A stretch of 64,000 nt of DNA from Sporisorium sorghi (Eukaryota; Basidiomycota; Ustilaginomycetes; Ustilaginales; Ustilaginaceae), in NCBI GenBank assembly GCA_023212695.1, contig JALCCG010000042.1, positions 1-64,000 of the forward strand, written 5' to 3'. A program made the translations under genes and the position numbers. Below the pieces are notes generated by a model. That model saw nothing but the letters and a program-made list of their open reading frames with translations, was not told the DNA's origin and did not search any database. Positions 45,390 through 57,597 of this stretch are shown here, in pieces (position 1 is the stretch's first letter; every line of letters begins with the position of its first letter).

Positions 45390-46283
45390 TCACCCTTTTA
45401 CCGAGCCAATCATGACGCCTTTAACAAAATGCCTTTGCACAAACGGATACATAAGCAGTACAGGCAAACTGGAGACAATAATGACCGCGTATTTAATGCT
45501 CTCGGCAAGCAGGATTTTGTCTTCCAAACCAATGCTGCCGTCCACCGCATCAGATTGACTAATCAGCAGAATTTCGCGGAGCACCAGCTGAAGCGGATGC
45601 AAATTCTCGTTACGAATATAGATGAGCGCATTAAAAAATGAATTCCAGTGTCCTACCGCATAGAACAGCACCATGACCGCCAGAATCGGCTTGGATAAGG
45701 GCAGGATGATGCTCAGCAGCAGCCTCCAGTTGGAGCACCCATCGATATGGGCAGCCTCCTGCAGCTCCCACGGAATGCTCGATTGGAAATACGTTCTCAT
45801 CACGATCAGATTGTAGGTCGCGATGGCACCGGGAACAATCAATGCCCACATCGTATCGACCATTCCCAGGTCCTTGACCAACAGATAAGTCGGAATCAGC
45901 CCTCCGCTGAAAAACATGGTCAGGGTGATAAACACCATAATTGTATTGCGTCCTGGAAGGTCAGGTCTCGATAGCGGGTACGCTGCCAGTATCGTCATGA
46001 TGATATTAATTACCGTCCCTACAATCGTATAGAAGATCGTATTGCGGTAACCGATCCAAATCTTATCGTTATGCAAAATATTCGTGTAGGCATCGAGCGT
46101 TACGCTCTTGGGCAGCAGCCAAACCTCCCCGTTCAGCACCCTTGCCGGATCACTGAACGAAGCGCTGACAATAAAGATTAACGGATACAGCACAATGAGA
46201 ATAATGATGGCGGCGACCGCGTAAATGATCACATCGAATACCCATTCATCCGAGGTTCTTTTTATGGCCGATGGCTTGGACAT
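45390..46283 (-). CDS. LplC/YtcP-like carbohydrate ABC transporter permease
   Basis: This 297-residue protein has six helices, with SASFSDPARVLNGEVWLLPK after the first and the EAA loop ELQEAAHIDGCSNWRLLLSIILPLSKP. It ends HFVKGVMIGSVKG, typical of LplC-type permeases. ATG at 46283 follows GGGGGA. It pairs with the LplB-like permease 16 bases upstream. No dedicated ATPase is encoded. Confidence 0.9.
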   Translation of the reverse strand: MSKPSAIKRTSDEWVFDVIIYAVAAIIILIVLYPLIFIVSASFSDPARVLNGEVWLLPKSVTLDAYTNILHNDKIWIGYRNTIFYTIVGTVINIIMTILAAYPLSRPDLPGRNTIMVFITLTMFFSGGLIPTYLLVKDLGMVDTMWALIVPGAIATYNLIVMRTYFQSSIPWELQEAAHIDGCSNWRLLLSIILPLSKPILAVMVLFYAVGHWNSFFNALIYIRNENLHPLQLVLREILLISQSDAVDGSIGLEDKILLAESIKYAVIIVSSLPVLLMYPFVQRHFVKGVMIGSVKG

Positions 46284-46299
46284 GTCGCGTTTTCCCCCT

Positions 46300-47262
46300 T
46301 TACCATAAACTCGTCTCCGACGTTTTACGCGCAATTCGGTTTACAAGCAGCAGCAAAATCAGGTTGATGATCGAATTAAACAGCCCGATCGCTGCCGTGT
46401 AACTGTACTCTCCCTTTAAAATGCCTGTCGTGTAAACAAACGTGGAAATGACATCACTCGATTCGAGATTCAAATTATTTTGCATCAGCAAAATTTTCTC
46501 AAAGCCAATGTTCATGAAATGGCCGATATCCAAAATCAGCAGAATGATAACAACAGGAGCGATGCCGGGTAAGGATATATGCCAAATCCGCTTCAGTCTT
46601 GTCGCTCCGTCCATCTTGGCAGCCTCATAAAGCTGCGGGTTCACCCCGCTCAATGCCGCAATGTAGATAATGGACTGCCAGCCCATGTTCTGCCATATGT
46701 TAGAGCCGATAAAAATGGTCTTAAACCAGCCGGCTTCCTCCATAAAACGGACCGGCGTGCCTCCCATTGCCTCGATCAGCAGATTGACCGGACCGCTGGT
46801 AGGCGAGAGGAATACATTCAATATGCCGACAATCACAACTACGGAAATAAAGTGCGGAATATACGTAATGTTCTGCAGCCATTTGCTGAAGGTCTTGTTA
46901 CGAATTTCATTAATGATCAACGCCAGCAAGATGGGAATCGGAAAAGCGATCAACAGCGAGAACAGATTAATGGACAACGTATTCCACAGCAGCCTCCAGA
47001 AATAATACGAATCGAAGAAGCGTTCGAAATGCCCGAAGCCCTCCCAGCTGCTCCCAAGGATTCCCTTGGCCGGGTTGAAATTCTTAAACGCAATTTGCAG
47101 CCCGTACAACGGACCATAGTGAAAAACCAGATACCAGACGACCGGCACAAGCAGCATGAGGTACAGGTCATACCTTTTGGCCATTTGTCTTAGCAAGCGG
47201 GGACCTCGCCTTCGTTGACCTGGAGGCATAGTGATCGTTGTATCGGCTTTGACACTCTTCAT
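46300..47262 (-). CDS. LplB/YteP-like carbohydrate ABC transporter permease
   Basis: This 320-residue permease has a basic N-terminal tail (QRRRGPRLLRQMAKRYDLYLM), the EAA loop LYEAAKMDGATRLKRIWHIS and the characteristic GPLYGLQIAFKNFNPAKGILGS loop. ATG at 47262 is nine bases from AAGGAG; an in-frame ATG seven codons earlier lies upstream of that site. The protein joins LplC-like and the binding protein to import oligosaccharides, probably arabinose-containing given the GH51 gene. Confidence 0.9.
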   Translation of the reverse strand: MKSVKADTTITMPPGQRRRGPRLLRQMAKRYDLYLMLLVPVVWYLVFHYGPLYGLQIAFKNFNPAKGILGSSWEGFGHFERFFDSYYFWRLLWNTLSINLFSLLIAFPIPILLALIINEIRNKTFSKWLQNITYIPHFISVVVIVGILNVFLSPTSGPVNLLIEAMGGTPVRFMEEAGWFKTIFIGSNIWQNMGWQSIIYIAALSGVNPQLYEAAKMDGATRLKRIWHISLPGIAPVVIILLILDIGHFMNIGFEKILLMQNNLNLESSDVISTFVYTTGILKGEYSYTAAIGLFNSIINLILLLLVNRIARKTSETSLW

Positions 47263-47295
47263 GGGCATCCACTCCTTATCCATGATGTGGCAGCA

Positions 47296-49065: not shown

Positions 49066-50151
49066 TTATCCTTTTCCCAGACTGTTCAAGTACTCTTGCG
49101 GTGTCATTCCCGTAATCTCCTTGAACACTTTAAAAAAATAGTTATGAGTCGTGAACCCCACTTGATTGCTGATTTCCTTGATGGTATAGCGCCCGCTTTC
49201 CATCAGTTTGCACCCTGCGTCGATTCGTACCCGATTCAAGTATTCCGAGAAGGTCCGCTGCGTCTCCTCCTTGAAAATTCGGCTTAAGTAGGATGAGTTC
49301 AACCCGATGGCGCCTGCCGCTAGCTCCAATGTGACATACCCCGGATATCTCTCCAGGATGAAGTGGATGGCTTGCGTGACATGACGAGAATATGCCCCGC
49401 TCACACGGTGCTGCTTCAGCAGGCCCAGCAAGTCGGCATAGAAGGATAACAGCCACTGCTCCAATTCCCCGACACTGCCCATCCTTCCGAGTTCGGTTCT
49501 TGCAGGAAGCCTGTCCCCTGCTGCTTCAATGGATGGCATCCATGTTTTCAATGCCTTATCACCGGTCTGTATCAGCTCACTGACAATGATCTGAACCGTA
49601 TGCGAATGGATTGGCTGATGGGAGATCGAAGCAAATATGGATGAAATTAAAGCCTGCACATCTTGGGTGTCCAGTCTTTCGATGGAGAGCAGAAGCTGCT
49701 TGTGCTCTTCGATCGTCAAAGAAACGCGCTCTTTGTACCCTCCGGCAAATCCGACAGCGTGGTCCATTATCCTTGGCGGCGTATTCTCGGCGAGCGGCAC
49801 CTTGACGGATGAAGCATCTAGTTCCCGCTCAGCTGAGCTGTAACTGGATCCAAGCTGGGATAAGCTGGTGCACACATGTCCTATAGCGGTTACGCATCTT
49901 AAATTGAGGAATAATTCAAGGGCGTGCTGAATCTTCCTTATTCGTCCATCTGCCTCGCTCATCACGGCAAATTCACTTCGTTCCTTGTTCGCAAACACAA
50001 CAACAAACCGCCCATCCTCCACATAAGCTGCCGTCCGCTCATGGATATCCCCCAAACTCTGCTGCATCATATCCACTACCTGCTGAACCAGCCGATTCGT
50101 TTGCACATCGCTGTACGATTCCGTCAGCAGCCGAAACGGGATAATCTGCAC
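49066..50151 (-). pseudogene. AraC/YesN-type C-terminal part of a frameshifted response regulator
   Basis: These 361 residues comprise the central linker of a YesN-like regulator (DVQTNRLVQQVVDMMQQSLG) and a C-terminal AraC DNA-binding domain (LELAAGAIGLNSSYLSRIFK and IKEISNQVGFTTHNYFFKVF). There is no receiver domain and only a GTG start without a ribosome site. The open frame begins at 50187, inside the end of the receiver fragment, which is read in another frame. The two pieces together equal one full YesN-type regulator, so a one-base frameshift or a sequencing error splits them. Confidence 0.8.
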
Positions 50152-50711
50152 AGCCGCAGCCGTATAACTGAAGGTCTGGGATACAGGTTATTCCTCTGGG
50201 AGAAGGTTTCAAACTCCAGGCTTGCGTCCATCCCTCCCCGGATCAAATGCACAACATAATCGCGGATCAGAACAGGGTTCATCCTCTCTTCCAGAGCCTG
50301 CCGGGCAATGCGTTCTTCAAGCAGCCGATCCTCCTGCCGCAATGCCAGGACCGCTTTATTCAGCATGGCGGTCAGCGTTGCTCCGTCCAGCCGATGCTTC
50401 AATACATAATCGATGGACCCGTTCTTCAGGGACTCCCGCACGTAGTCATAGTCATCAAAGCTGCTGAGCATGATGGTCTTAATGGCCGGGAAGCGTTCTT
50501 TGATCGCTCGGTTGAGCTCTACACCGTTCATGCCGGGCATGTTCACGTCAATAATTGCAATATGAGGAGGGGACTGCTCCATCATCGCCAGGGCCATGAA
50601 TCCGTTATGCGCTTGGCCGCACAGCTGAAATCCATGCTCATTCCAGTCGAGTAACGTCCACAGATTATGCCGCACCAGCGGCTCATCGTCGACAAGCAGC
50701 ACTTGAAACAT
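50124..50711 (-). pseudogene. receiver-domain N-terminal part of a frameshifted YesN-type response regulator
   Basis: This reading frame has a complete receiver domain, MFQVLLVDDEPLVRHN, with phosphoacceptor Asp in AIIDVNMPGMNGVE and Lys in DYVLKHRL, followed by a coiled linker. The reading frame then drifts into low-similarity sequence and stops at 50124, overlapping the AraC part. AGAGGTGAT precedes the ATG, four bases after the kinase stop. If the frameshift is real, phosphorylation no longer controls DNA binding and the locus regulation is crippled. Confidence 0.82.
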
Positions 50712-50714
50712 CGC

Positions 50715-52514
50715 TTATATCACCTCTTGTTCGGATTCTCCCTTACGCTCCGTAAGTTTCGGCAGCCGGATCTCAACCTTGGTATACAGACCCGGCTCAC
50801 TGTACAACTTGACGCCGTATGAATGACCATACAGGTGTACGATCCGTTCATGCACGTTACGCACCCCCATTCCGCTAAAACGGGACGTATTCCCGCTCTT
50901 TCCCTTCTCACCCAACAAAGCAGCCTTCTGCCTCTCTGTCATACCCTTGCCATGGTCGATCACTTCAATCTTGAGGTCGCCCCCCTCTTCGCTTACGCGT
51001 ATCAGCACAAGTCCCTCCCGCTCCAGCGGTCCGATACCATGAATAATGGCATTCTCCACAAGAGGTTGCAGCATCAGCTTCAGCACCCGATATTCCAGCA
51101 AAGCATCATCCTCAATCTGGGCAACCATCCGGATCGGCTCCATATACCTGTACTTGACGATGGAGATATAGCGTTCAACATAATCCAGTTCCTCCCGCAT
51201 CGTTAGAAATTCGCTTGAATTGCCCAGAACCCCGCGCATGAGCTCAATCAACGATCCCGACACTTCTTCGATGTTCGGCACGCCGTTCATCTTGGCCAGA
51301 TACTTAATGGTGTTCAGCGAATTATATAAAAAATGAGGATGAATCTGCGCCTGAAGGGCCGTTAACTCGGCTTCCCGCTTGGCCCTCTCACTGACCCGGA
51401 TTCCTTCCATCAGCCGCTTCAAATCCTCCACCATGCTGATAAAGACGCGGTACAGCTGCCCGGTCTCATCCTCGCCCTTGATCTCCTTCCTGGGAAACGT
51501 TAAATTCCCCTCCTTCACCAACATCATCAACGATTTCAATCTCCGGATATTAAGGGTGATCCGCGAAGACACCTGCAGCGACCCGATGAGAACCACAACA
51601 AAGACGATGACCGACACCTCCGCCAGCAGCTTGCGCAGCCTTGCCGATTCGCTCAGCAGCGAATCCATCGGAATCAACGCCAGCGTGGTCCAGCCCGTAT
51701 AACCGGATCGGCGGCTGACCACGATATAGTCTCTCCCGTCAATAACTTGCTTGATAGCATCACCATTACCTGCAAGCTCCTGATTGAGGCCGACAATCCT
51801 TTCGGATAAAGGGGCAAAAGACGGTGCCGATTCGGCCTCATAAACGAACCCGCCCTGCTTGTCCAGCACATAGATCATGCTGTCCGTAGTCGGCTTCACG
51901 CCGTAGGTTTTTTGGATAAAATCATAATTCAAGTCCACCATGACCACCCCGATCGGTTCACGATTGTAGCGGATCTCCCGCCCTACCGTGATGGCGTCCG
52001 ACACCCCCGTCTGCTTGAAATACGCATGGCGGGATCCGTTCTGCAGCATATAATCCAGCATCGGTGACCCCAGCACCGTCCTGTCCAGCCACGGCCCACC
52101 GGAGAAATACACCTTTCCGCTCAGACCGACCACAGCGATCCGTGTAATGTAGGGCTTATAATCGATCAGAACGGACAGGAACTCATCGATCCGCTTCTGC
52201 TCCTGAAACCACTCATAACTGATCTCTTCATTCGGGCTTAACAGGGTGTCAATCACCGTGTTTTTGTTGGTCACCACAACGGTGTTCAACCGATCGATCT
52301 CTTCCAGCATCATATTCAGCGATTCATCCGCCTGCCGAATGCTGTCCGATACCGAGGTGACCGCATTGTGCATGATCGTCTCACGCATGCTCATGTAAAC
52401 AATGACCGTAATCGAGACAATGGACACGAGGGTAACCGCACTAAACGCAATGAATATTTTCCCTTGAATGCTTCGACCGGGCGATATCCACCTCTGAATC
52501 GTAGAGAGCTTCAT
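50715..52514 (-). CDS. YesM-like sensor histidine kinase
   Basis: This 599-residue membrane kinase has one helix near residues 20-45, an extracellular sensor domain of about 240 residues, a second helix near 280-300, HAMP (IRRLKSLMMLVKEGNLTF), the histidine-kinase region with His392 in QIHPHFLYNSLNTIKYL, and the ATPase with LMLQPLVENAIIHGI and IDHGKGMTERQ. ATG at 52514 follows AAAAGGAG. It is the sensor for the adjacent frameshifted YesN-type regulator and probably detects a saccharide outside the cell. A cre site lies in its promoter spacer. Confidence 0.93.
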   Translation of the reverse strand: MKLSTIQRWISPGRSIQGKIFIAFSAVTLVSIVSITVIVYMSMRETIMHNAVTSVSDSIRQADESLNMMLEEIDRLNTVVVTNKNTVIDTLLSPNEEISYEWFQEQKRIDEFLSVLIDYKPYITRIAVVGLSGKVYFSGGPWLDRTVLGSPMLDYMLQNGSRHAYFKQTGVSDAITVGREIRYNREPIGVVMVDLNYDFIQKTYGVKPTTDSMIYVLDKQGGFVYEAESAPSFAPLSERIVGLNQELAGNGDAIKQVIDGRDYIVVSRRSGYTGWTTLALIPMDSLLSESARLRKLLAEVSVIVFVVVLIGSLQVSSRITLNIRRLKSLMMLVKEGNLTFPRKEIKGEDETGQLYRVFISMVEDLKRLMEGIRVSERAKREAELTALQAQIHPHFLYNSLNTIKYLAKMNGVPNIEEVSGSLIELMRGVLGNSSEFLTMREELDYVERYISIVKYRYMEPIRMVAQIEDDALLEYRVLKLMLQPLVENAIIHGIGPLEREGLVLIRVSEEGGDLKIEVIDHGKGMTERQKAALLGEKGKSGNTSRFSGMGVRNVHERIVHLYGHSYGVKLYSEPGLYTKVEIRLPKLTERKGESEQEVI

Positions 52515-52545
52515 AGCGAATTCTCCTTTTTCAAGATCAAGCGAA

Positions 52546-52574
52546 ATTATAAGTAACCGTTTACAAAATGTCAT
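52546..52574 (-). promoter_or_regulatory. sigma-A promoter of the YesM-like gene with embedded cre site
   Basis: On the - strand ATGACA (52569-52574) and a consensus TATAAT (52546-52551) are 17 bases apart. The spacer contains TGTAAACGGTTACT (52552-52565), a match to the cre consensus TGTAANCGNTNACA except at its last base. CcpA bound here would directly exclude polymerase. Confidence 0.85.
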
Positions 52575-52601: not shown

Positions 52602-53456
52602 TCAGCATTGGGTTCCCCGCATGGTAACGGGAGGCACCTTGTAATAAATCTTGAAGGCTCTTGTGAATGAGTATAAATTGGGATAGCCAAGAGACAGGGC
52701 AATCTCCGTAATCGTTGCGTCCGTTTCGGTCAGCAATCGTTTCGCCTTCTCCATCCGTATCTTCTGCATGTATTTTAACGGAGGCATCCCTACCTGACTG
52801 GTGAACATATTGGAGAAGTACGAACGGTGCACCCCCGCAAATTCAGCCACCTGCTGTACCGAAATCCCTTCGGTCGCGTGAAGTTCCATGTAATCCAAAC
52901 ACTCATGAATCCATCCCGCAAGCTCTGTCGGCTGCGAAGAAACCGTGTCCGGCACCAGTCCGGCAAGCAGTCCGTAGATCAAGCCATGCAGTTCCAGTGA
53001 AACCGAGGGCTTCCAGCGTTCCACGCCAGCCAGGGCATGAATCGCGCTTTCCGACGACTCCTTGACCCGGGCGGATAACATTTGTTTGCCAAACGGGCTA
53101 TCCGGAAGCAAACCGGCAAGCTCCAATAACGGCTTGACCCTGTTGCCGTCCAATGCGAGCCAGCTCATTTGCAGCGGAGAATCCGAGGGAAGCATGTGGT
53201 AGTAATAGGTCCGCCCCGGAAACAGGCAGAACACATCGTTCTTCTGCAGATCCACCCGTTTACCGTCGAACTCAAGCCGGACCATGCCTTCATGCACAAA
53301 ATGCAGACTGTAACACTCGATCCGTTTCGGTCCGACCTTGTAATTGGGCTTGGCTGCAGTTCGTCCTGCCCGAACCGGCCAAATTTGTTCCTCCTTATCC
53401 AAATATCCCGGCGTATAGTAGATGAATTCCGCATACTCGTATTCATATTCCTGCAT
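52602..53456 (-). CDS. AraC-family transcriptional regulator
   Basis: This 284-residue regulator has an N-terminal cupin-like sugar-sensing domain (LHFVHEGMVRLEFDGKRVDL, FCLFPGRTYYYHML) and two C-terminal helix-turn-helices (ISVQQVAEFAGVHRSYFSNMFTS and ATITEIALSLGYPNLYSFTRAFK). AGGAGGGG precedes the ATG. It is transcribed divergently from the sulfatase operon across a 125-base AT-rich gap. It is therefore the likely direct activator of that operon. It could also compensate for the broken YesN regulator. Confidence 0.9.
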   Translation of the reverse strand: MQEYEYEYAEFIYYTPGYLDKEEQIWPVRAGRTAAKPNYKVGPKRIECYSLHFVHEGMVRLEFDGKRVDLQKNDVFCLFPGRTYYYHMLPSDSPLQMSWLALDGNRVKPLLELAGLLPDSPFGKQMLSARVKESSESAIHALAGVERWKPSVSLELHGLIYGLLAGLVPDTVSSQPTELAGWIHECLDYMELHATEGISVQQVAEFAGVHRSYFSNMFTSQVGMPPLKYMQKIRMEKAKRLLTETDATITEIALSLGYPNLYSFTRAFKIYYKVPPVTMRGTQC

Positions 53457-53581: not shown

Positions 53582-55120
53582 TTGTCGAGAACACCTAACA
53601 TTTTGCTAATAACGAGTGATCAACAGCATTGGAACACCATCGGTGCATTTCAGTCTGAAATTTCCACGCCGAATCTGGACCGTCTCGCCCGGCAAGGGAC
53701 AACGTTCGATCGGGCCTATTGCCCCAATCCCACCTGCACCCCCAGCAGAGCATCCATCATTACCGGAATGTATCCCAGTCAGCATGGAGCATGGACTTTG
53801 GGTACAAAACTGCTGGAAGACCGCCACACCGTGGGTCAAAGCTTCAAGGAAGCCGGATATCGAACGGGTCTTGTCGGCAAAGCTCATTTTCAGCCACTGA
53901 AATCCACGGATGTTTATCCTTCGCTGGAAGCGTACCCGATCCTTCAGGATTTGGAATATTGGAGAAATTTCCATGGACCATTTTACGGATTCGACCATGT
54001 TGAACTGGCCCGCAACCACACCAATGAAGCCCATGTCGGTCAACATTATGCACAATGGCTGGAAGAACAAGGGTGTGCCAACTGGCGGGAATACTTCCTG
54101 CCGCCGACGGGAACCATGGATCCTTCCCGGACGTACACATGGCCCATCCCGGAGAAATACCATTACAACGCCTGGATTGCCGAACGAACCGGCTCCCTTT
54201 TGGACCAATACCAGAGCTCGGATGACCCTTTCTTTCTGTGGGCCAGCTTCTTCGACCCGCATCCGGAATATCTGGCCCCGGAACCGTGGGACTCGATGTA
54301 TGACCCTGACGAACTGACCATCCCATCCGTAACACCGGGAGAGCATGACCGGAATCCGCCGCATTTCCAGTTGACGCAAGAGGACGATCCGGACTTCTCA
54401 CATCTTGCAGAGACGGGGTATGGCATACACGGCTACCGTTCCCATCACTATTACGAGTATGGCGCAAAGGCACGATTAACGGAGTATGACAAGAAAAAGC
54501 TTGTCGCCGTGTATTACGGCATGATCAGCCTGATGGACAAATATATCGGCAAAATCCTCGATAAACTGGATGATCTGGGACTGGCGGAGAATACCGTCGT
54601 TGTATTCACAACGGATCACGGCCACTTCTTCGGCCAGCACGGCCTTCAAGCCAAGGGAGGGTTCCATTACGAGGATTTAATCCGGATTCCGTTTATGGTA
54701 AGGTACCCCGATCAGGTGCCTGCCGGAAAAAAATCAAATGCCATGCAATCCCTGGTCGATCTGGCCCCGACCTTCCTATCGCTCTGCAACGTTCCGATTC
54801 CGCACGCCATGACGGGCGTCGACCAAAAGGACGTGTGGCTCGGCAAGAAGGCGGCCGCTCGGGAGCATGCCCTCTGCGAGTTCCGGCACGAGCCGACAAC
54901 GATTCATCAAAAAACGTATGTCGAACAGCGTTATAAGATCACCGTCTATTACAATCAATCCTACGGTGAGCTGTTCGACCTTGAGACCGATCCTAACGAG
55001 CTGCATAACCTGTGGAACGAGCCGGAGCACGAGCAGCTGAAGGCCGAGCTATTGCTCAAATATATCTGGGCCGAGCTTGGCAAGGAACCGATGCCGATGC
55101 CCAGAATCCATCATGCGTAA
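53582..55120 (+). CDS. type I sulfatase (formylglycine-dependent)
   Basis: This 512-residue protein has the sulfatase signature C-T-P-S-R at Cys52-Arg56 (NPTCTPSRASIITG), where the cysteine becomes formylglycine. Asp13 is in the metal-binding TSDQQ, and the second metal motif is TTDHGHFFGQHG. There is no signal peptide, so it acts in the cytoplasm on imported substrate. The TTG start is set by AGGAGGGG. It hydrolyses sulfate esters, and the GH51 neighbourhood suggests a sulfated arabinose-containing sugar. The last base overlaps the next start (TAATG). The maturation enzyme is encoded three genes downstream. Confidence 0.93.
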   Translation: MSRTPNILLITSDQQHWNTIGAFQSEISTPNLDRLARQGTTFDRAYCPNPTCTPSRASIITGMYPSQHGAWTLGTKLLEDRHTVGQSFKEAGYRTGLVGKAHFQPLKSTDVYPSLEAYPILQDLEYWRNFHGPFYGFDHVELARNHTNEAHVGQHYAQWLEEQGCANWREYFLPPTGTMDPSRTYTWPIPEKYHYNAWIAERTGSLLDQYQSSDDPFFLWASFFDPHPEYLAPEPWDSMYDPDELTIPSVTPGEHDRNPPHFQLTQEDDPDFSHLAETGYGIHGYRSHHYYEYGAKARLTEYDKKKLVAVYYGMISLMDKYIGKILDKLDDLGLAENTVVVFTTDHGHFFGQHGLQAKGGFHYEDLIRIPFMVRYPDQVPAGKKSNAMQSLVDLAPTFLSLCNVPIPHAMTGVDQKDVWLGKKAAAREHALCEFRHEPTTIHQKTYVEQRYKITVYYNQSYGELFDLETDPNELHNLWNEPEHEQLKAELLLKYIWAELGKEPMPMPRIHHA

Positions 55121-55767
55121 TGGAAATCATGAGAGATCGCATCAAGGGACTGAAGCATAAATTCAAGCTGCTGAACCAGCTGTTCTGGACCTTCTTCCGC
55201 ATCGGGCCCTCCACCTTCGGAGGCGGGTATGCCATGCTGCCGATTATTGAGCGCGAAGTGGTGAGCAAGAAAAAATGGATGCAAGAGGATGAAATCGGTG
55301 AGCTTATATCGCTCGCCGGCTCAGCTCCCGGAGGCGTTGGCGTCAATGCGGCTGCCATCATCGGCCACCGTCAGGCTGGCGTTGCCGGAGCTGTGTCGGC
55401 GGTCATCGGAGTGACATGTCCCACGTTTCTGATTGTGATTCTGATCAGCATATTTGCCATGGTGTTCCGAAACCAGCCTAAAGTCGAAGCTGCTCTAAAG
55501 GGGATGAACGGTGCCATTATAGCGCTAATCCTCATGGCAGCATATCGGATGGCCAAGTATTCCGTCTTTGACAGGACGACAGCGATAGCTGCCCTTGCTA
55601 CCGTCTCCGTGCTGTTATTTGCTGGTGTCCACCCCCTCTATCTTATAGCTCTGGGTTTGTTATGCGGCATGACGGTCATCCGGATCAAACTACGGCTTGG
55701 ACTTCGGGCCCGGACCGAGAAGCAGACAGCAACCGGCAGCCCTTCGGAGCTGGAGTATTACATTTAA
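55120..55767 (+). CDS. half-size CHR-family (chromate/sulfate) transporter, first subunit
   Basis: This 215-residue protein has about five helices and one CHR domain: FFRIGPSTFGGGYAMLPIIEREVVSKKKW and the repeated LISLAGSAPGGVGVNAAAIIGHRQAG motif. Short CHR proteins occur in pairs that together form the equivalent of a full-length transporter. Members export chromate or move sulfate. Placed in one operon with a sulfatase and a formylglycine-generating enzyme, its likely cargo is sulfate released in the cytoplasm. The ATG overlaps the sulfatase stop by one base. Confidence 0.87.
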   Translation: MEIMRDRIKGLKHKFKLLNQLFWTFFRIGPSTFGGGYAMLPIIEREVVSKKKWMQEDEIGELISLAGSAPGGVGVNAAAIIGHRQAGVAGAVSAVIGVTCPTFLIVILISIFAMVFRNQPKVEAALKGMNGAIIALILMAAYRMAKYSVFDRTTAIAALATVSVLLFAGVHPLYLIALGLLCGMTVIRIKLRLGLRARTEKQTATGSPSELEYYI

Positions 55768-55793
55768 GCGAGAGAAATCGGGGCGATCGAATC

Positions 55794-56324
55794 ATGTATT
55801 GGGACTTGTTTATCATGTTTATAAGCGTAGGCCTTGTGTCGTTTGGCGGCGGTTATGCAGTCATTCCGATGATTCAGTATGAGGTCACGGAAAAAGGATG
55901 GCTGACAGCCGCGGAGTTCCAACAGACAGTGGCGCTGGCTGGAATGGCGCCCGGCTCGATTGCAACCAATGCCGCCACGCTGATCGGCTATGAAACAGCA
56001 GGCTATCTCGGAGCCGCCGTCTCCACCGCTGGGATCATTATCCCGTCGTTGATCGTTGTTGTGCTGCTCTCTGCCTTCTTCTACCGCTTGCAGGACAATC
56101 CATGGCTGAAATCTTCCCTGTACGGCTTGCGGCCTGTAACGACCGGGCTCATTCTATATGCAGCCATTCACTTTGGCTTGTCAAATGAAGGCGCAGCGAT
56201 AACCTGGGGCATCGTCCCCACGCTCCTTATCAGTGGTGCTTGCCTGTATCTCTTGCTGAAGCACAAGCTCCACCCGCTGCTCCTTCTCATTGTCGCCGGC
56301 GCTGCCGGCATTGTTTTATTCTAA
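55794..56324 (+). CDS. half-size CHR-family (chromate/sulfate) transporter, second subunit
   Basis: This 176-residue protein is a second CHR domain: FISVGLVSFGGGYAVIPMIQYEVTEKGW and TVALAGMAPGSIATNAATLIGYETAG. It probably inserts in the opposite orientation to its partner, as paired short CHR proteins do. ATG at 55794 begins MYWDLFIMFISVGLV. The ribosome site is weak, with a 26-base gap from the first CHR gene, so coupling is plausible. Sulfate export is inferred from the operon; chromate resistance is the alternative. Confidence 0.86.
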   Translation: MYWDLFIMFISVGLVSFGGGYAVIPMIQYEVTEKGWLTAAEFQQTVALAGMAPGSIATNAATLIGYETAGYLGAAVSTAGIIIPSLIVVVLLSAFFYRLQDNPWLKSSLYGLRPVTTGLILYAAIHFGLSNEGAAITWGIVPTLLISGACLYLLLKHKLHPLLLLIVAGAAGIVLF

Positions 56325-56344
56325 CTTGAACTGGGAGGTGCATG

Positions 56345-57322
56345 ATGGAATCCCAACCGTCCTGCTGCACCGCAGCACGAAACAGGCTGAACGTCTCGGC
56401 CCCAACTCCTGCTGCAGGCCAGGCAGCGTTACCTGGCATGACGATTGCCGAATCCGAGAAGGACCGTATGGTTCAGCTTCCTGGCGGTCTATTTCTGATG
56501 GGCACCTCCGATCAGGAAGCCAATCCGTATGATGGAGAAGGACCCGTTCGGGAAGTAAATGTCAACGCTTTTGCGATTGCTCCCTATACGGTGACCAACA
56601 GCGATTTCGTCCGTTTCATACAAGCGACCGGATATAGGACAGAAGCTGAGAAGTTTGGCTGGTCGTATGTGTTTCACTTGTTCTTGACCGAACAGGCTGC
56701 TGCGGCAACACAGGCCCCGGCCCATACGCCATGGTGGAGAGCGGTACCCGGTGCGGACTGGGCTCATCCGGAAGGCCCCGGGTCAAGGCTCGTTCATCGT
56801 ATGGACCATCCCGTCGTCCATGTGTCCTGGAACGATGCCGACGCCTACTGCAAGTGGGCCGGAGTCAGGCTGCCCACGGAAGCCGAATGGGAATATGCCG
56901 CACGCGGCGGACTCGTGCAGAAACGATACCCTTGGGGCGATGAATTGAAGCCTGCTGGAGAGTTTCGCTGCAATATCTGGCAGGGGAGGTTTCCCGTGAA
57001 GAACCATGCCAGCGATGGTTATCCTGGCACGGCACCGGTTGGAGCCTATCGGCCGAACGGGTACGGTCTGTATCAGATGTCGGGCAATGTGTGGGAATGG
57101 TGCTCGGATTGGTATGACCGAAGCTATGATGTGACTGGACACACGGACAATCCCAAGGGACCACTGGAAGGACAAGAACGAGTCATGCGCGGCGGCTCCT
57201 ATTTATGCCATCGATCCTATTGCAATCGCTATCGCGTTGCCGCAAGGAACAAAAATACGCCGGACAGCTCATCCAGTCATGTCGGATTCCGCTGCGTCAA
57301 GGATATGGGTTATCTATCGTAG
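56345..57322 (+). CDS. formylglycine-generating enzyme (SUMF1/EgtB-type)
   Basis: This 325-residue protein has the FGE fold segments MVQLPGGLFLMGT, VSWNDADAYCKWAGVRLPTEAEWEYAARGG and GNVWEWCSDWY, ending in the active-site cysteine pair Cys288 and Cys293 (CHRSYCNRY), which in known FGEs bind copper. It converts the sulfatase cysteine to formylglycine. ATG at 56345 is six bases after GGAGG and is preferred to the ATG one codon earlier. It is last in the sulfatase operon, 20 bases after the second CHR gene. Sulfatase-FGE cotranscription strongly supports function. Confidence 0.93.
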   Translation: MESQPSCCTAARNRLNVSAPTPAAGQAALPGMTIAESEKDRMVQLPGGLFLMGTSDQEANPYDGEGPVREVNVNAFAIAPYTVTNSDFVRFIQATGYRTEAEKFGWSYVFHLFLTEQAAAATQAPAHTPWWRAVPGADWAHPEGPGSRLVHRMDHPVVHVSWNDADAYCKWAGVRLPTEAEWEYAARGGLVQKRYPWGDELKPAGEFRCNIWQGRFPVKNHASDGYPGTAPVGAYRPNGYGLYQMSGNVWEWCSDWYDRSYDVTGHTDNPKGPLEGQERVMRGGSYLCHRSYCNRYRVAARNKNTPDSSSSHVGFRCVKDMGYLS

Positions 57323-57559: not shown

Positions 57560-57597
57560 AAGACTAGTAAAATCAGGAATCTGATTTCACTAGTCTT
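57560..57597. terminator. terminator between the FGE gene and the ABC operon
   Basis: AAGACTAGT pairs with ACTAGTCTT, and inner AAATCAG/CTGATTT continue the stem. It serves convergent operons; the A-run upstream favours the leftward one. Confidence 0.82.

What the first reader, a model, noticed from the sequence alone, without database searches (positions are those of the whole stretch)
53582..57322. Self-contained sulfate-removal operon: sulfatase, paired CHR transporters and formylglycine-generating enzyme
Seen: a cytoplasmic sulfatase with a C-T-P-S-R motif, two half-size CHR proteins and an FGE with its Cys-x4-Cys pair lie in one tightly spaced operon. Known: FGE matures the sulfatase cysteine, and CHR proteins move chromate or sulfate. 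Inferred: the CHR pair exports sulfate released inside the cell, coupling desulfation to anion disposal. I know of no characterised system with this exact design.
Basis: partly seen in the sequence, partly recalled or inferred. Interest (0 to 1): 0.85.

Follow-up and report, generated by a model that had tools for sequence, protein, structure and literature searches.

The report
Sulfatase operon with putative sulfate exporter
A soil bacterium keeps a sulfate-clipping enzyme, the enzyme that switches it on and a pair of small membrane proteins in one operon, and relatives often keep the membrane pair beside sulfatase-activating genes, which suggests, without proving, that the pair pumps out the sulfate released inside the cell.

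Summary
The four genes are real and form one tight cluster on a Paenibacillus glucanolyticus-like contig: Cys-type S1 sulfatase (53582-55120), two half-size CHR proteins (55120-55767, 55794-56324) and a formylglycine-generating enzyme, FGE (56342-57322). The sulfatase stop overlaps the first CHR start. The exact set is rare, but CHR-maturase linkage is widespread in Paenibacillaceae: of 138 FGE genes from 245 genomes, 69 have a CHR gene within 4 kb; so do 23 of 49 genes for the unrelated maturase anSME. The order sulfatase-CHR-CHR-FGE occurs at 6 of 138 FGE loci, with three sulfatase families at most 26% identical. The linked CHRs form a subfamily apart from chromate-efflux pairs: the window's miss the curated cut-offs, while the same species keeps a pair that passes them. 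Best reading: the pair exports sulfate freed by cytoplasmic sulfatases. Transport was not tested. Against a sulfatase-only role: 38 of 106 genomes without either maturase carry the subfamily, and 56 of 80 loci of this sulfatase have no CHR pair near. The link was not seen in ten searches of open papers, nine papers opened for passages.

The parts
53582..55120 (+). S1 sulfatase, Cys type (C52-T-P-S-R56), 512 aa, no signal peptide seen; TTG start
   Evidence: PF00884/PF16347; D13, C52, R56, K100, H102, D345, H346, K358 invariant in 81 of 81 sequences, the window's included; nearest PDB chain 9ihk, 1.2e-46
55120..55767 (+). CHR1, half-size CHR protein, 215 aa, first of the pair; start codon overlaps the sulfatase stop (TAATG)
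   Evidence: PF02417 155.5 bits; motifs SAPGGVGVNA and GGGYA; overlap kept in 7 of 7 co-directional loci
55794..56324 (+). CHR2, half-size CHR protein, 176 aa, second of the pair
   Evidence: PF02417 150.8 bits; motifs MAPGSIATNA and GGGYA
56342..57322 (+). Formylglycine-generating enzyme, 326 aa, with C289-x4-C294
   Evidence: PF03781 305.6 bits; solved FGEs at E about 1e-114; C289 and C294 in 139 of 139 aligned FGEs
52602..53456 (-). AraC-family regulator, divergent from the sulfatase
   Evidence: PF12833/PF02311; its family is in 61 of 80 homologous loci, not always in the divergent position
50715..52574 (-). Sensor histidine kinase of the neighbouring operon
   Evidence: PF06580, PF02518; family in 29 of 80 loci
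49066..50711 (-). Response regulator of that operon, split over two frames in the window (50124-50711 and 49066-50151)
   Evidence: PF00072 and PF12833 on separate ORFs; one 550-aa frame in L009
47296..48948 (-). ABC transporter solute-binding protein, possible import route for the substrate
   Evidence: PF01547; family in 35 of 80 loci
45390..47283 (-). Two ABC transporter permeases (46300-47283 and 45390-46334)
   Evidence: PF00528
43288..45393 (-). Arabinofuranosidase-like glycoside hydrolase, next in the same orientation
   Evidence: PF06964 53 bits; family in 12 of 80 loci

Best explanation
A desulfation operon with its own anion exporter. A sulfated sugar probably enters through the neighbouring ABC transporter (inferred). 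The FGE converts Cys52 of the sulfatase to formylglycine in the cytoplasm (inferred from families and motifs). The sulfatase hydrolyses the sulfate ester inside the cell (inferred). The CHR1-CHR2 pair, of a subfamily distinct from the chromate-efflux pairs, exports the released sulfate (inferred from linkage; the central untested step). Shown here: the gene cluster, the repeated linkage of this CHR subfamily to two unrelated maturases and to several sulfatase families, and its separation from chromate-type CHR pairs.
For: Stop-start overlap of sulfatase and CHR1, kept in 7 of 7 co-directional loci. A CHR gene within 4 kb of 69 of 138 FGE genes, and the subfamily within 4 kb of 23 of 49 anSME genes. 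Of the 150 subfamily rows listed (the list was cut), 80 lie within 4 kb of a maturase gene; about 0.2-0.4 expected from random placement. The two maturases are non-homologous and swap while the CHR pair stays: anSME in 10 and FGE in 5 of 80 homologous loci. Exact order sulfatase-CHR-CHR-FGE at 6 of 138 FGE loci with three sulfatase families. Co-occurrence: subfamily in 116 of 139 genomes with a maturase against 38 of 106 without. Sulfatases in stretches with both FGE and CHR look cytoplasmic, 30 of 30 by a crude rule. The pair is tied to the maturase, which serves all such sulfatases, so a product common to all, sulfate, fits better than one substrate (inference). Chromate is a structural analogue of sulfate (PMC2751784, passages).
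Against: No transport data. 38 of 106 genomes without FGE or anSME carry the subfamily; of these 38, 20 were read: 0 of 20 has a sulfatase, FGE or anSME in the stretch and 15 of 20 have a ROK regulator (tip labels). 56 of 80 loci of this sulfatase have no CHR pair within about 4 kb (7 of the 80 loci are cut short by contig ends; L071 has one about 7 kb off). 23 of 139 maturase genomes lack the subfamily at the cut-off used. Outside Paenibacillaceae no CHR was seen near 15 anSME loci or 7 plasmid FGEs, though the anSME test is weak. The cross-table has no correction for relatedness or genome size. The CHR1 model matched no solved structure convincingly.
Confidence: 0.58

Rival explanations
1. 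The CHR subfamily is a sugar-regulated exporter of a different or broader anion, not sulfate in particular. Sulfatase regions are one of several places where it is useful.
For: A ROK-family regulator is in the fetched stretch of 85 of 122 subfamily tips against 0 of 19 chromate-type or long-chain tips. 38 of 106 genomes without either maturase have the subfamily; 0 of the 20 read has a sulfatase gene in the stretch.
Against: 80 of 116 listed subfamily genes in maturase-bearing genomes lie within 4 kb of a maturase gene. The two deepest groups of the subfamily in the tree are 8 of 10 and 17 of 17 FGE-linked (the sample was enriched for FGE loci).
Confidence: 0.22
2. The pair works inwards: it imports sulfate or the sulfate ester.
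For: CHR proteins act on oxyanions; direction cannot be read from sequence.
Against: Import of sulfate would not serve a cell that frees sulfate inside. The neighbouring ABC transporter is the likelier importer. The B. subtilis ywrBA pair is described as an efflux system (PMC8940164, passages).
Confidence: 0.1
3. An ordinary chromate-resistance pair that happens to sit beside the sulfatase.
For: Sources that name its close relatives call them chromate transporter; PF02417 membership.
Against: 64-93 bits against the 250-bit cut-offs of the chromate pair; another pair of the species passes them at 314.8 and 282.2 bits and has an Lrp/AsnC regulator; motif LPGPIATK replaced by APGGVGVN and APGSIATN; linkage far beyond chance.
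Confidence: 0.06
4. Adjacency inherited by descent or arisen by chance, without functional coupling.
For: Part of the linkage is shared by close relatives; for example four of the six exact-order loci carry sulfatases 90-94% identical to each other.
Against: Co-directional, convergent and divergent arrangements, two unrelated maturases, three sulfatase families in the exact order, and 16 changes of linkage state needed on a quick CHR tree.
Confidence: 0.04

Closest known systems
Bacillus subtilis ywrB/ywrA (chr3N/chr3C) short-chain chromate efflux pair with ChrS
   Same: Two half-size CHR proteins encoded side by side; co-extrusion of sulfate has been hypothesised (PMC8940164, passages)
   Different: Chromate-responsive Lrp-type regulator there, AraC here. 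The window pair misses the curated ChrA/ChrB cut-offs and lacks the LPGPIATK motif of the related Paenibacillus pair L277. The B. subtilis sequences themselves were not compared
Long-chain ChrA chromate efflux transporters (TIGR00937)
   Same: Same Pfam domain, twice in one protein
   Different: Window proteins are half-size, 98.0 and 88.8 bits against the 171.7-bit cut-off; the species has a separate long-chain protein at 369.6 bits
Sulfatase-FGE gene neighbours
   Same: S1 sulfatase close to an FGE; 74 of 138 FGE loci here have a sulfatase within 4 kb
   Different: A CHR pair lies between the two genes in the window
Anaerobic sulfatase-maturating enzyme (anSME) loci
   Same: 10 of 80 homologous loci carry an anSME with the CHR pair; TIGR03942 399.7 bits, cut-off 349.45
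   Different: Radical SAM maturase in place of FGE; a ROK regulator beside the CHR pair

Membership tests
S1 sulfatase (Cys type) | Sulfatase family and C-x-P-S/A-R signature | tested here: met
   PF00884 185.2 bits; C52-T-P-S-R56
S1 sulfatase (Cys type) | Conserved metal and catalytic residues | tested here: met
   D13, C52, R56, K100, H102, D345, H346, K358 invariant in 81 of 81; their roles are recalled
S1 sulfatase (Cys type) | Sulfate ester hydrolysis | not testable with these tools
   No assay; substrate unknown; no curated NCBIfam cut-off passed
Formylglycine-generating enzyme | PF03781 and similarity to proven FGEs over the domain | tested here: met
   305.6 bits; residues 42-321 aligned to solved FGEs, E about 1e-114
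Formylglycine-generating enzyme | C-x4-C active-site pair | tested here: met
   C289 and C294 in 139 of 139; the pair's copper role is recalled (copper as cofactor seen as a cited title)
CHR superfamily | PF02417 domain | tested here: met
   155.5 and 150.8 bits, cut-off 28.6
Chromate efflux pair ChrA/ChrB (NF053760/NF053759) | Curated model cut-offs (250 bits) | tested here: not met
   CHR1 64.0 and 77.2, CHR2 93.0 and 80.0; positive control, L277 pair: 314.8 and 282.2
Chromate efflux pair ChrA/ChrB (NF053760/NF053759) | Lrp/AsnC-type regulator beside the pair | tested here: not met
   AraC beside the window operon; Lrp/AsnC beside the L277 pair
Chromate efflux pair ChrA/ChrB (NF053760/NF053759) | Chromate export | not testable with these tools
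   Needs an assay
Long-chain ChrA (TIGR00937) | Two CHR domains in one protein, cut-off 171.7 bits | tested here: not met
   Half-size; 98.0 and 88.8 bits

The most novel reading that the evidence does not exclude
A subfamily of CHR 'chromate transporters' in Paenibacillaceae is really the sulfate exporter of intracellular desulfation, often carried as a module with whichever sulfatase maturase the genome uses (oxygen-dependent FGE or oxygen-independent anSME). Many proteins now named chromate transporter would be misnamed.
Probability: 0.5. Interest if true: 0.75.

Novelty: new variant of a known kind. Interest (0 to 1): 0.62.

Why it matters
If true, cells that desulfate sugars in the cytoplasm have a dedicated way to dispose of the sulfate, tied to the enzyme that activates sulfatases. 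It would give short CHR pairs a physiological role other than chromate resistance and correct a common annotation. One deletion and one vesicle assay would test it.

Tried and rejected
Chance adjacency: 80 observed against about 0.2-0.4 expected. Plain chromate pair: curated models, regulator and motifs disagree. Spread beyond Paenibacillaceae: not seen, in limited samples. In one search, 3 of 398 Bacillota genomes had an FGE at E <= 1e-70, and all three also appear in the Paenibacillaceae draw. In one search, 15 of 299 genomes gave 16 anSME loci with about 1.5 kb of flank; 15 loci are from genomes other than G061. None shows a CHR, but this test is weak: G061 itself has a CHR 1,498 bases away and its locus L337 also shows none, and 18 of the 23 linked anSME genes lie more than 1 kb from the CHR. 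Of 248 plasmid records with an FGE, 7 were read with 6 kb flanks: 0 of 7 has a CHR.

Literature: ten searches. No CHR-sulfatase or CHR-FGE link was seen in the listings or in passages of nine papers: PMC10434189, PMC6367360, PMC8940164, PMC2751784, PMC6019500, PMC3596284, PMC9281055, PMC12452194, PMC9777792. The one paper holding sulfatase, chromate transporter and formylglycine together (PMC6019500) lists them on different clones. The other listed papers were not opened. Nies 1998 was seen only as a title in a reference list and is not held. Only openly licensed PMC papers are searched.

Limits of the counts. One search counts any CHR ORF in the stretch; some stretches are cut by contig ends (such as L147, L155, L157, L254) and L181 and L226 hold broken CHR frames. 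One search listed 150 rows and said that more exist; so did. I handed 40 of the 80 loci; L021 was not held, leaving 39 genomes. The 40 CHR loci were picked by hand and include linked ones. Of 38 maturase-free genomes with the subfamily, 20 were fetched. The tree is a quick one with long branches; 1 of 19 outgroup tips (L280) is misplaced. The signal-peptide rule is crude; it flagged 3 of 46 sulfatases in FGE stretches without CHR and 2 of 81 of the window's family. anSME counts: clustering gave 9 of 80, a profile-free recount 10 of 80.
Full report
What is there. The window contig matches P. glucanolyticus NBRC 15330 (L009) at 98.6% over 11,851 bases. On the + strand lie a Cys-type S1 sulfatase, two half-size CHR proteins and an FGE. 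The sulfatase stop and CHR1 start overlap; TAATG or TGATG is kept in 7 of 7 co-directional loci, L009 being the same species, which suggests translational coupling (inference). The FGE matches solved FGEs at E about 1e-114, and its C289-x4-C294 pair is kept in 139 of 139 aligned FGEs. Eight key sulfatase residues are invariant in 81 of 81. Upstream on the other strand lie an AraC regulator, sensor kinase, response regulator, ABC transporter and glycoside hydrolase.

Conservation of this locus. A scan of one genome per species found 372 stretches encoding a relative of the sulfatase; the best 80 were kept. A CHR pair lies within about 4 kb in 24 of 80: 7 co-directional (L009-L015), 12 convergent, 3 divergent (L052, L053, L056), and L026 and L078. 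56 of 80 have none that near; 7 of the 80 loci are cut short. An FGE is in 5 of 80 and an anSME in 10 of 80. The anSME passes the curated model TIGR03942. Of 39 of these genomes searched whole, 9 have no FGE match better than 1e-20, and all 9 have an anSME.

Linkage beyond this sulfatase. Of 245 Paenibacillaceae genomes, 119 have an FGE at E <= 1e-70. All 138 FGE genes listed were fetched with up to 4 kb on each side. 69 of 138 have a CHR gene there, 74 a sulfatase, 36 both, 8 an anSME. With the window's CHR1 as query at E <= 1e-31 the subfamily (CHR-S here) is in 154 of 245 genomes; anSME at E <= 1e-70 is in 45 of 245. Of 49 anSME rows, 23 have CHR-S within 4 kb. Of the 150 CHR-S rows listed, 65 lie within 4 kb of an FGE, 23 of an anSME, 80 of either; in maturase-bearing genomes 80 of 116. 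Random placement would give about 0.2-0.4. The exact order sulfatase-CHR-CHR-FGE occurs at 6 of 138 FGE loci: L139 (this species), L140, L142, L148, L152 and L232. L140, L142, L148 and L152 carry one sulfatase family (90-94% identical among themselves, CMPAR); L232 another (CGPAR); identities between the three families are 23-26%.

A distinct subfamily. CHR proteins at these loci separate from chromate-type pairs in score, in a quick tree and in motifs. Chromate-type pairs mostly carry LPGPIATK and GGGP; CHR-S carries PGG-[VI]-x-V-N or PG[PS]-I-A-x-N, with GGGY. By a pattern search the Asn is in 117 of 129 first and 106 of 128 second proteins, the Lys in 34 of 44 chromate-type ones. The window CHRs miss the curated chromate models; a second pair of the species, L277, passes them and adjoins an Lrp/AsnC regulator. 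A ROK regulator is in the stretch of 85 of 122 CHR-S tips and 0 of 19 chromate-type or long-chain tips.

Results against. CHR-S occurs in 38 of 106 genomes with neither maturase, against 116 of 139 with one (Fisher odds ratio 9.0, p 1.7e-14, no correction for relatedness). Of those 38, 20 were read: none shows a sulfatase, FGE or anSME, and 15 have a ROK regulator (tip labels). Outside the family no CHR was seen near 15 anSME loci or 7 of 248 plasmid FGE records; the anSME test is weak because its flanks, about 1.5 kb, would also miss most of the known linked cases. So the link is shown for Paenibacillaceae only, and CHR-S may have a use apart from sulfatases.

Mechanism. The maturase serves every formylglycine sulfatase of the cell, so a transporter tied to it most simply handles what all sulfatases share, the sulfate product. 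Sulfatases in stretches with both FGE and CHR look cytoplasmic (30 of 30 by a crude rule), so sulfate would be freed inside. Chromate is a sulfate analogue (PMC2751784, passages), and sulfate co-extrusion by a CHR pair has been proposed (PMC8940164, passages). Export of sulfate is therefore the best reading, but it is inference. That FGE needs oxygen and anSME does not is recalled.

Novelty. Ten searches of open papers and passages of nine papers showed no report of this link. Subscription papers are not held, so prior description cannot be excluded.

Changes after checking. anSME count in the 80 loci raised from 9 to 10; weakness of the outside-family anSME test and the stem at 57560-57597 added; five more papers opened.

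Noticed in passing
window 49066-50711: The response regulator of the divergent operon is split over two overlapping frames; L009 has one 550-aa frame. Mutation or assembly error; not resolved.
   Followed up: partly
G000 (whole assembly); L007: The window's assembly is 23.2 Mb in 469 contigs and holds on contig C67 a CHR gene that looks fungal by eye, so the Paenibacillus contig is probably a contaminant or co-culture. The rRNA check did not complete.
   Followed up: partly
L317-L336: CHR pairs of the same subfamily in genomes without FGE or anSME, 15 of 20 with a ROK regulator and 0 of 20 with a sulfatase in the stretch: function unexplained.
   Followed up: partly
L355 6001-8573: On a Halomicrobium urmianum plasmid the FGE is followed by an annotated inorganic phosphate transporter: another anion transporter beside an FGE.
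   Followed up: no
window 56342-57322: An N-terminal Cys-Cys (C8, C9) of the FGE is kept in 137 and 138 of 139 aligned FGEs; role unknown to me.
   Followed up: no
G000:C111:81246-82085: A second full-length FGE in the assembly, 64% identical; its probable P. glucanolyticus counterpart L252 lies next to another sulfatase.
   Followed up: partly
L170: One locus holds anSME, CHR pair, FGE and sulfatase together.
   Followed up: no
window 57560-57597: A 17-pair stem, terminator-like on the - strand, about 240 bases after the FGE stop.
   Followed up: no
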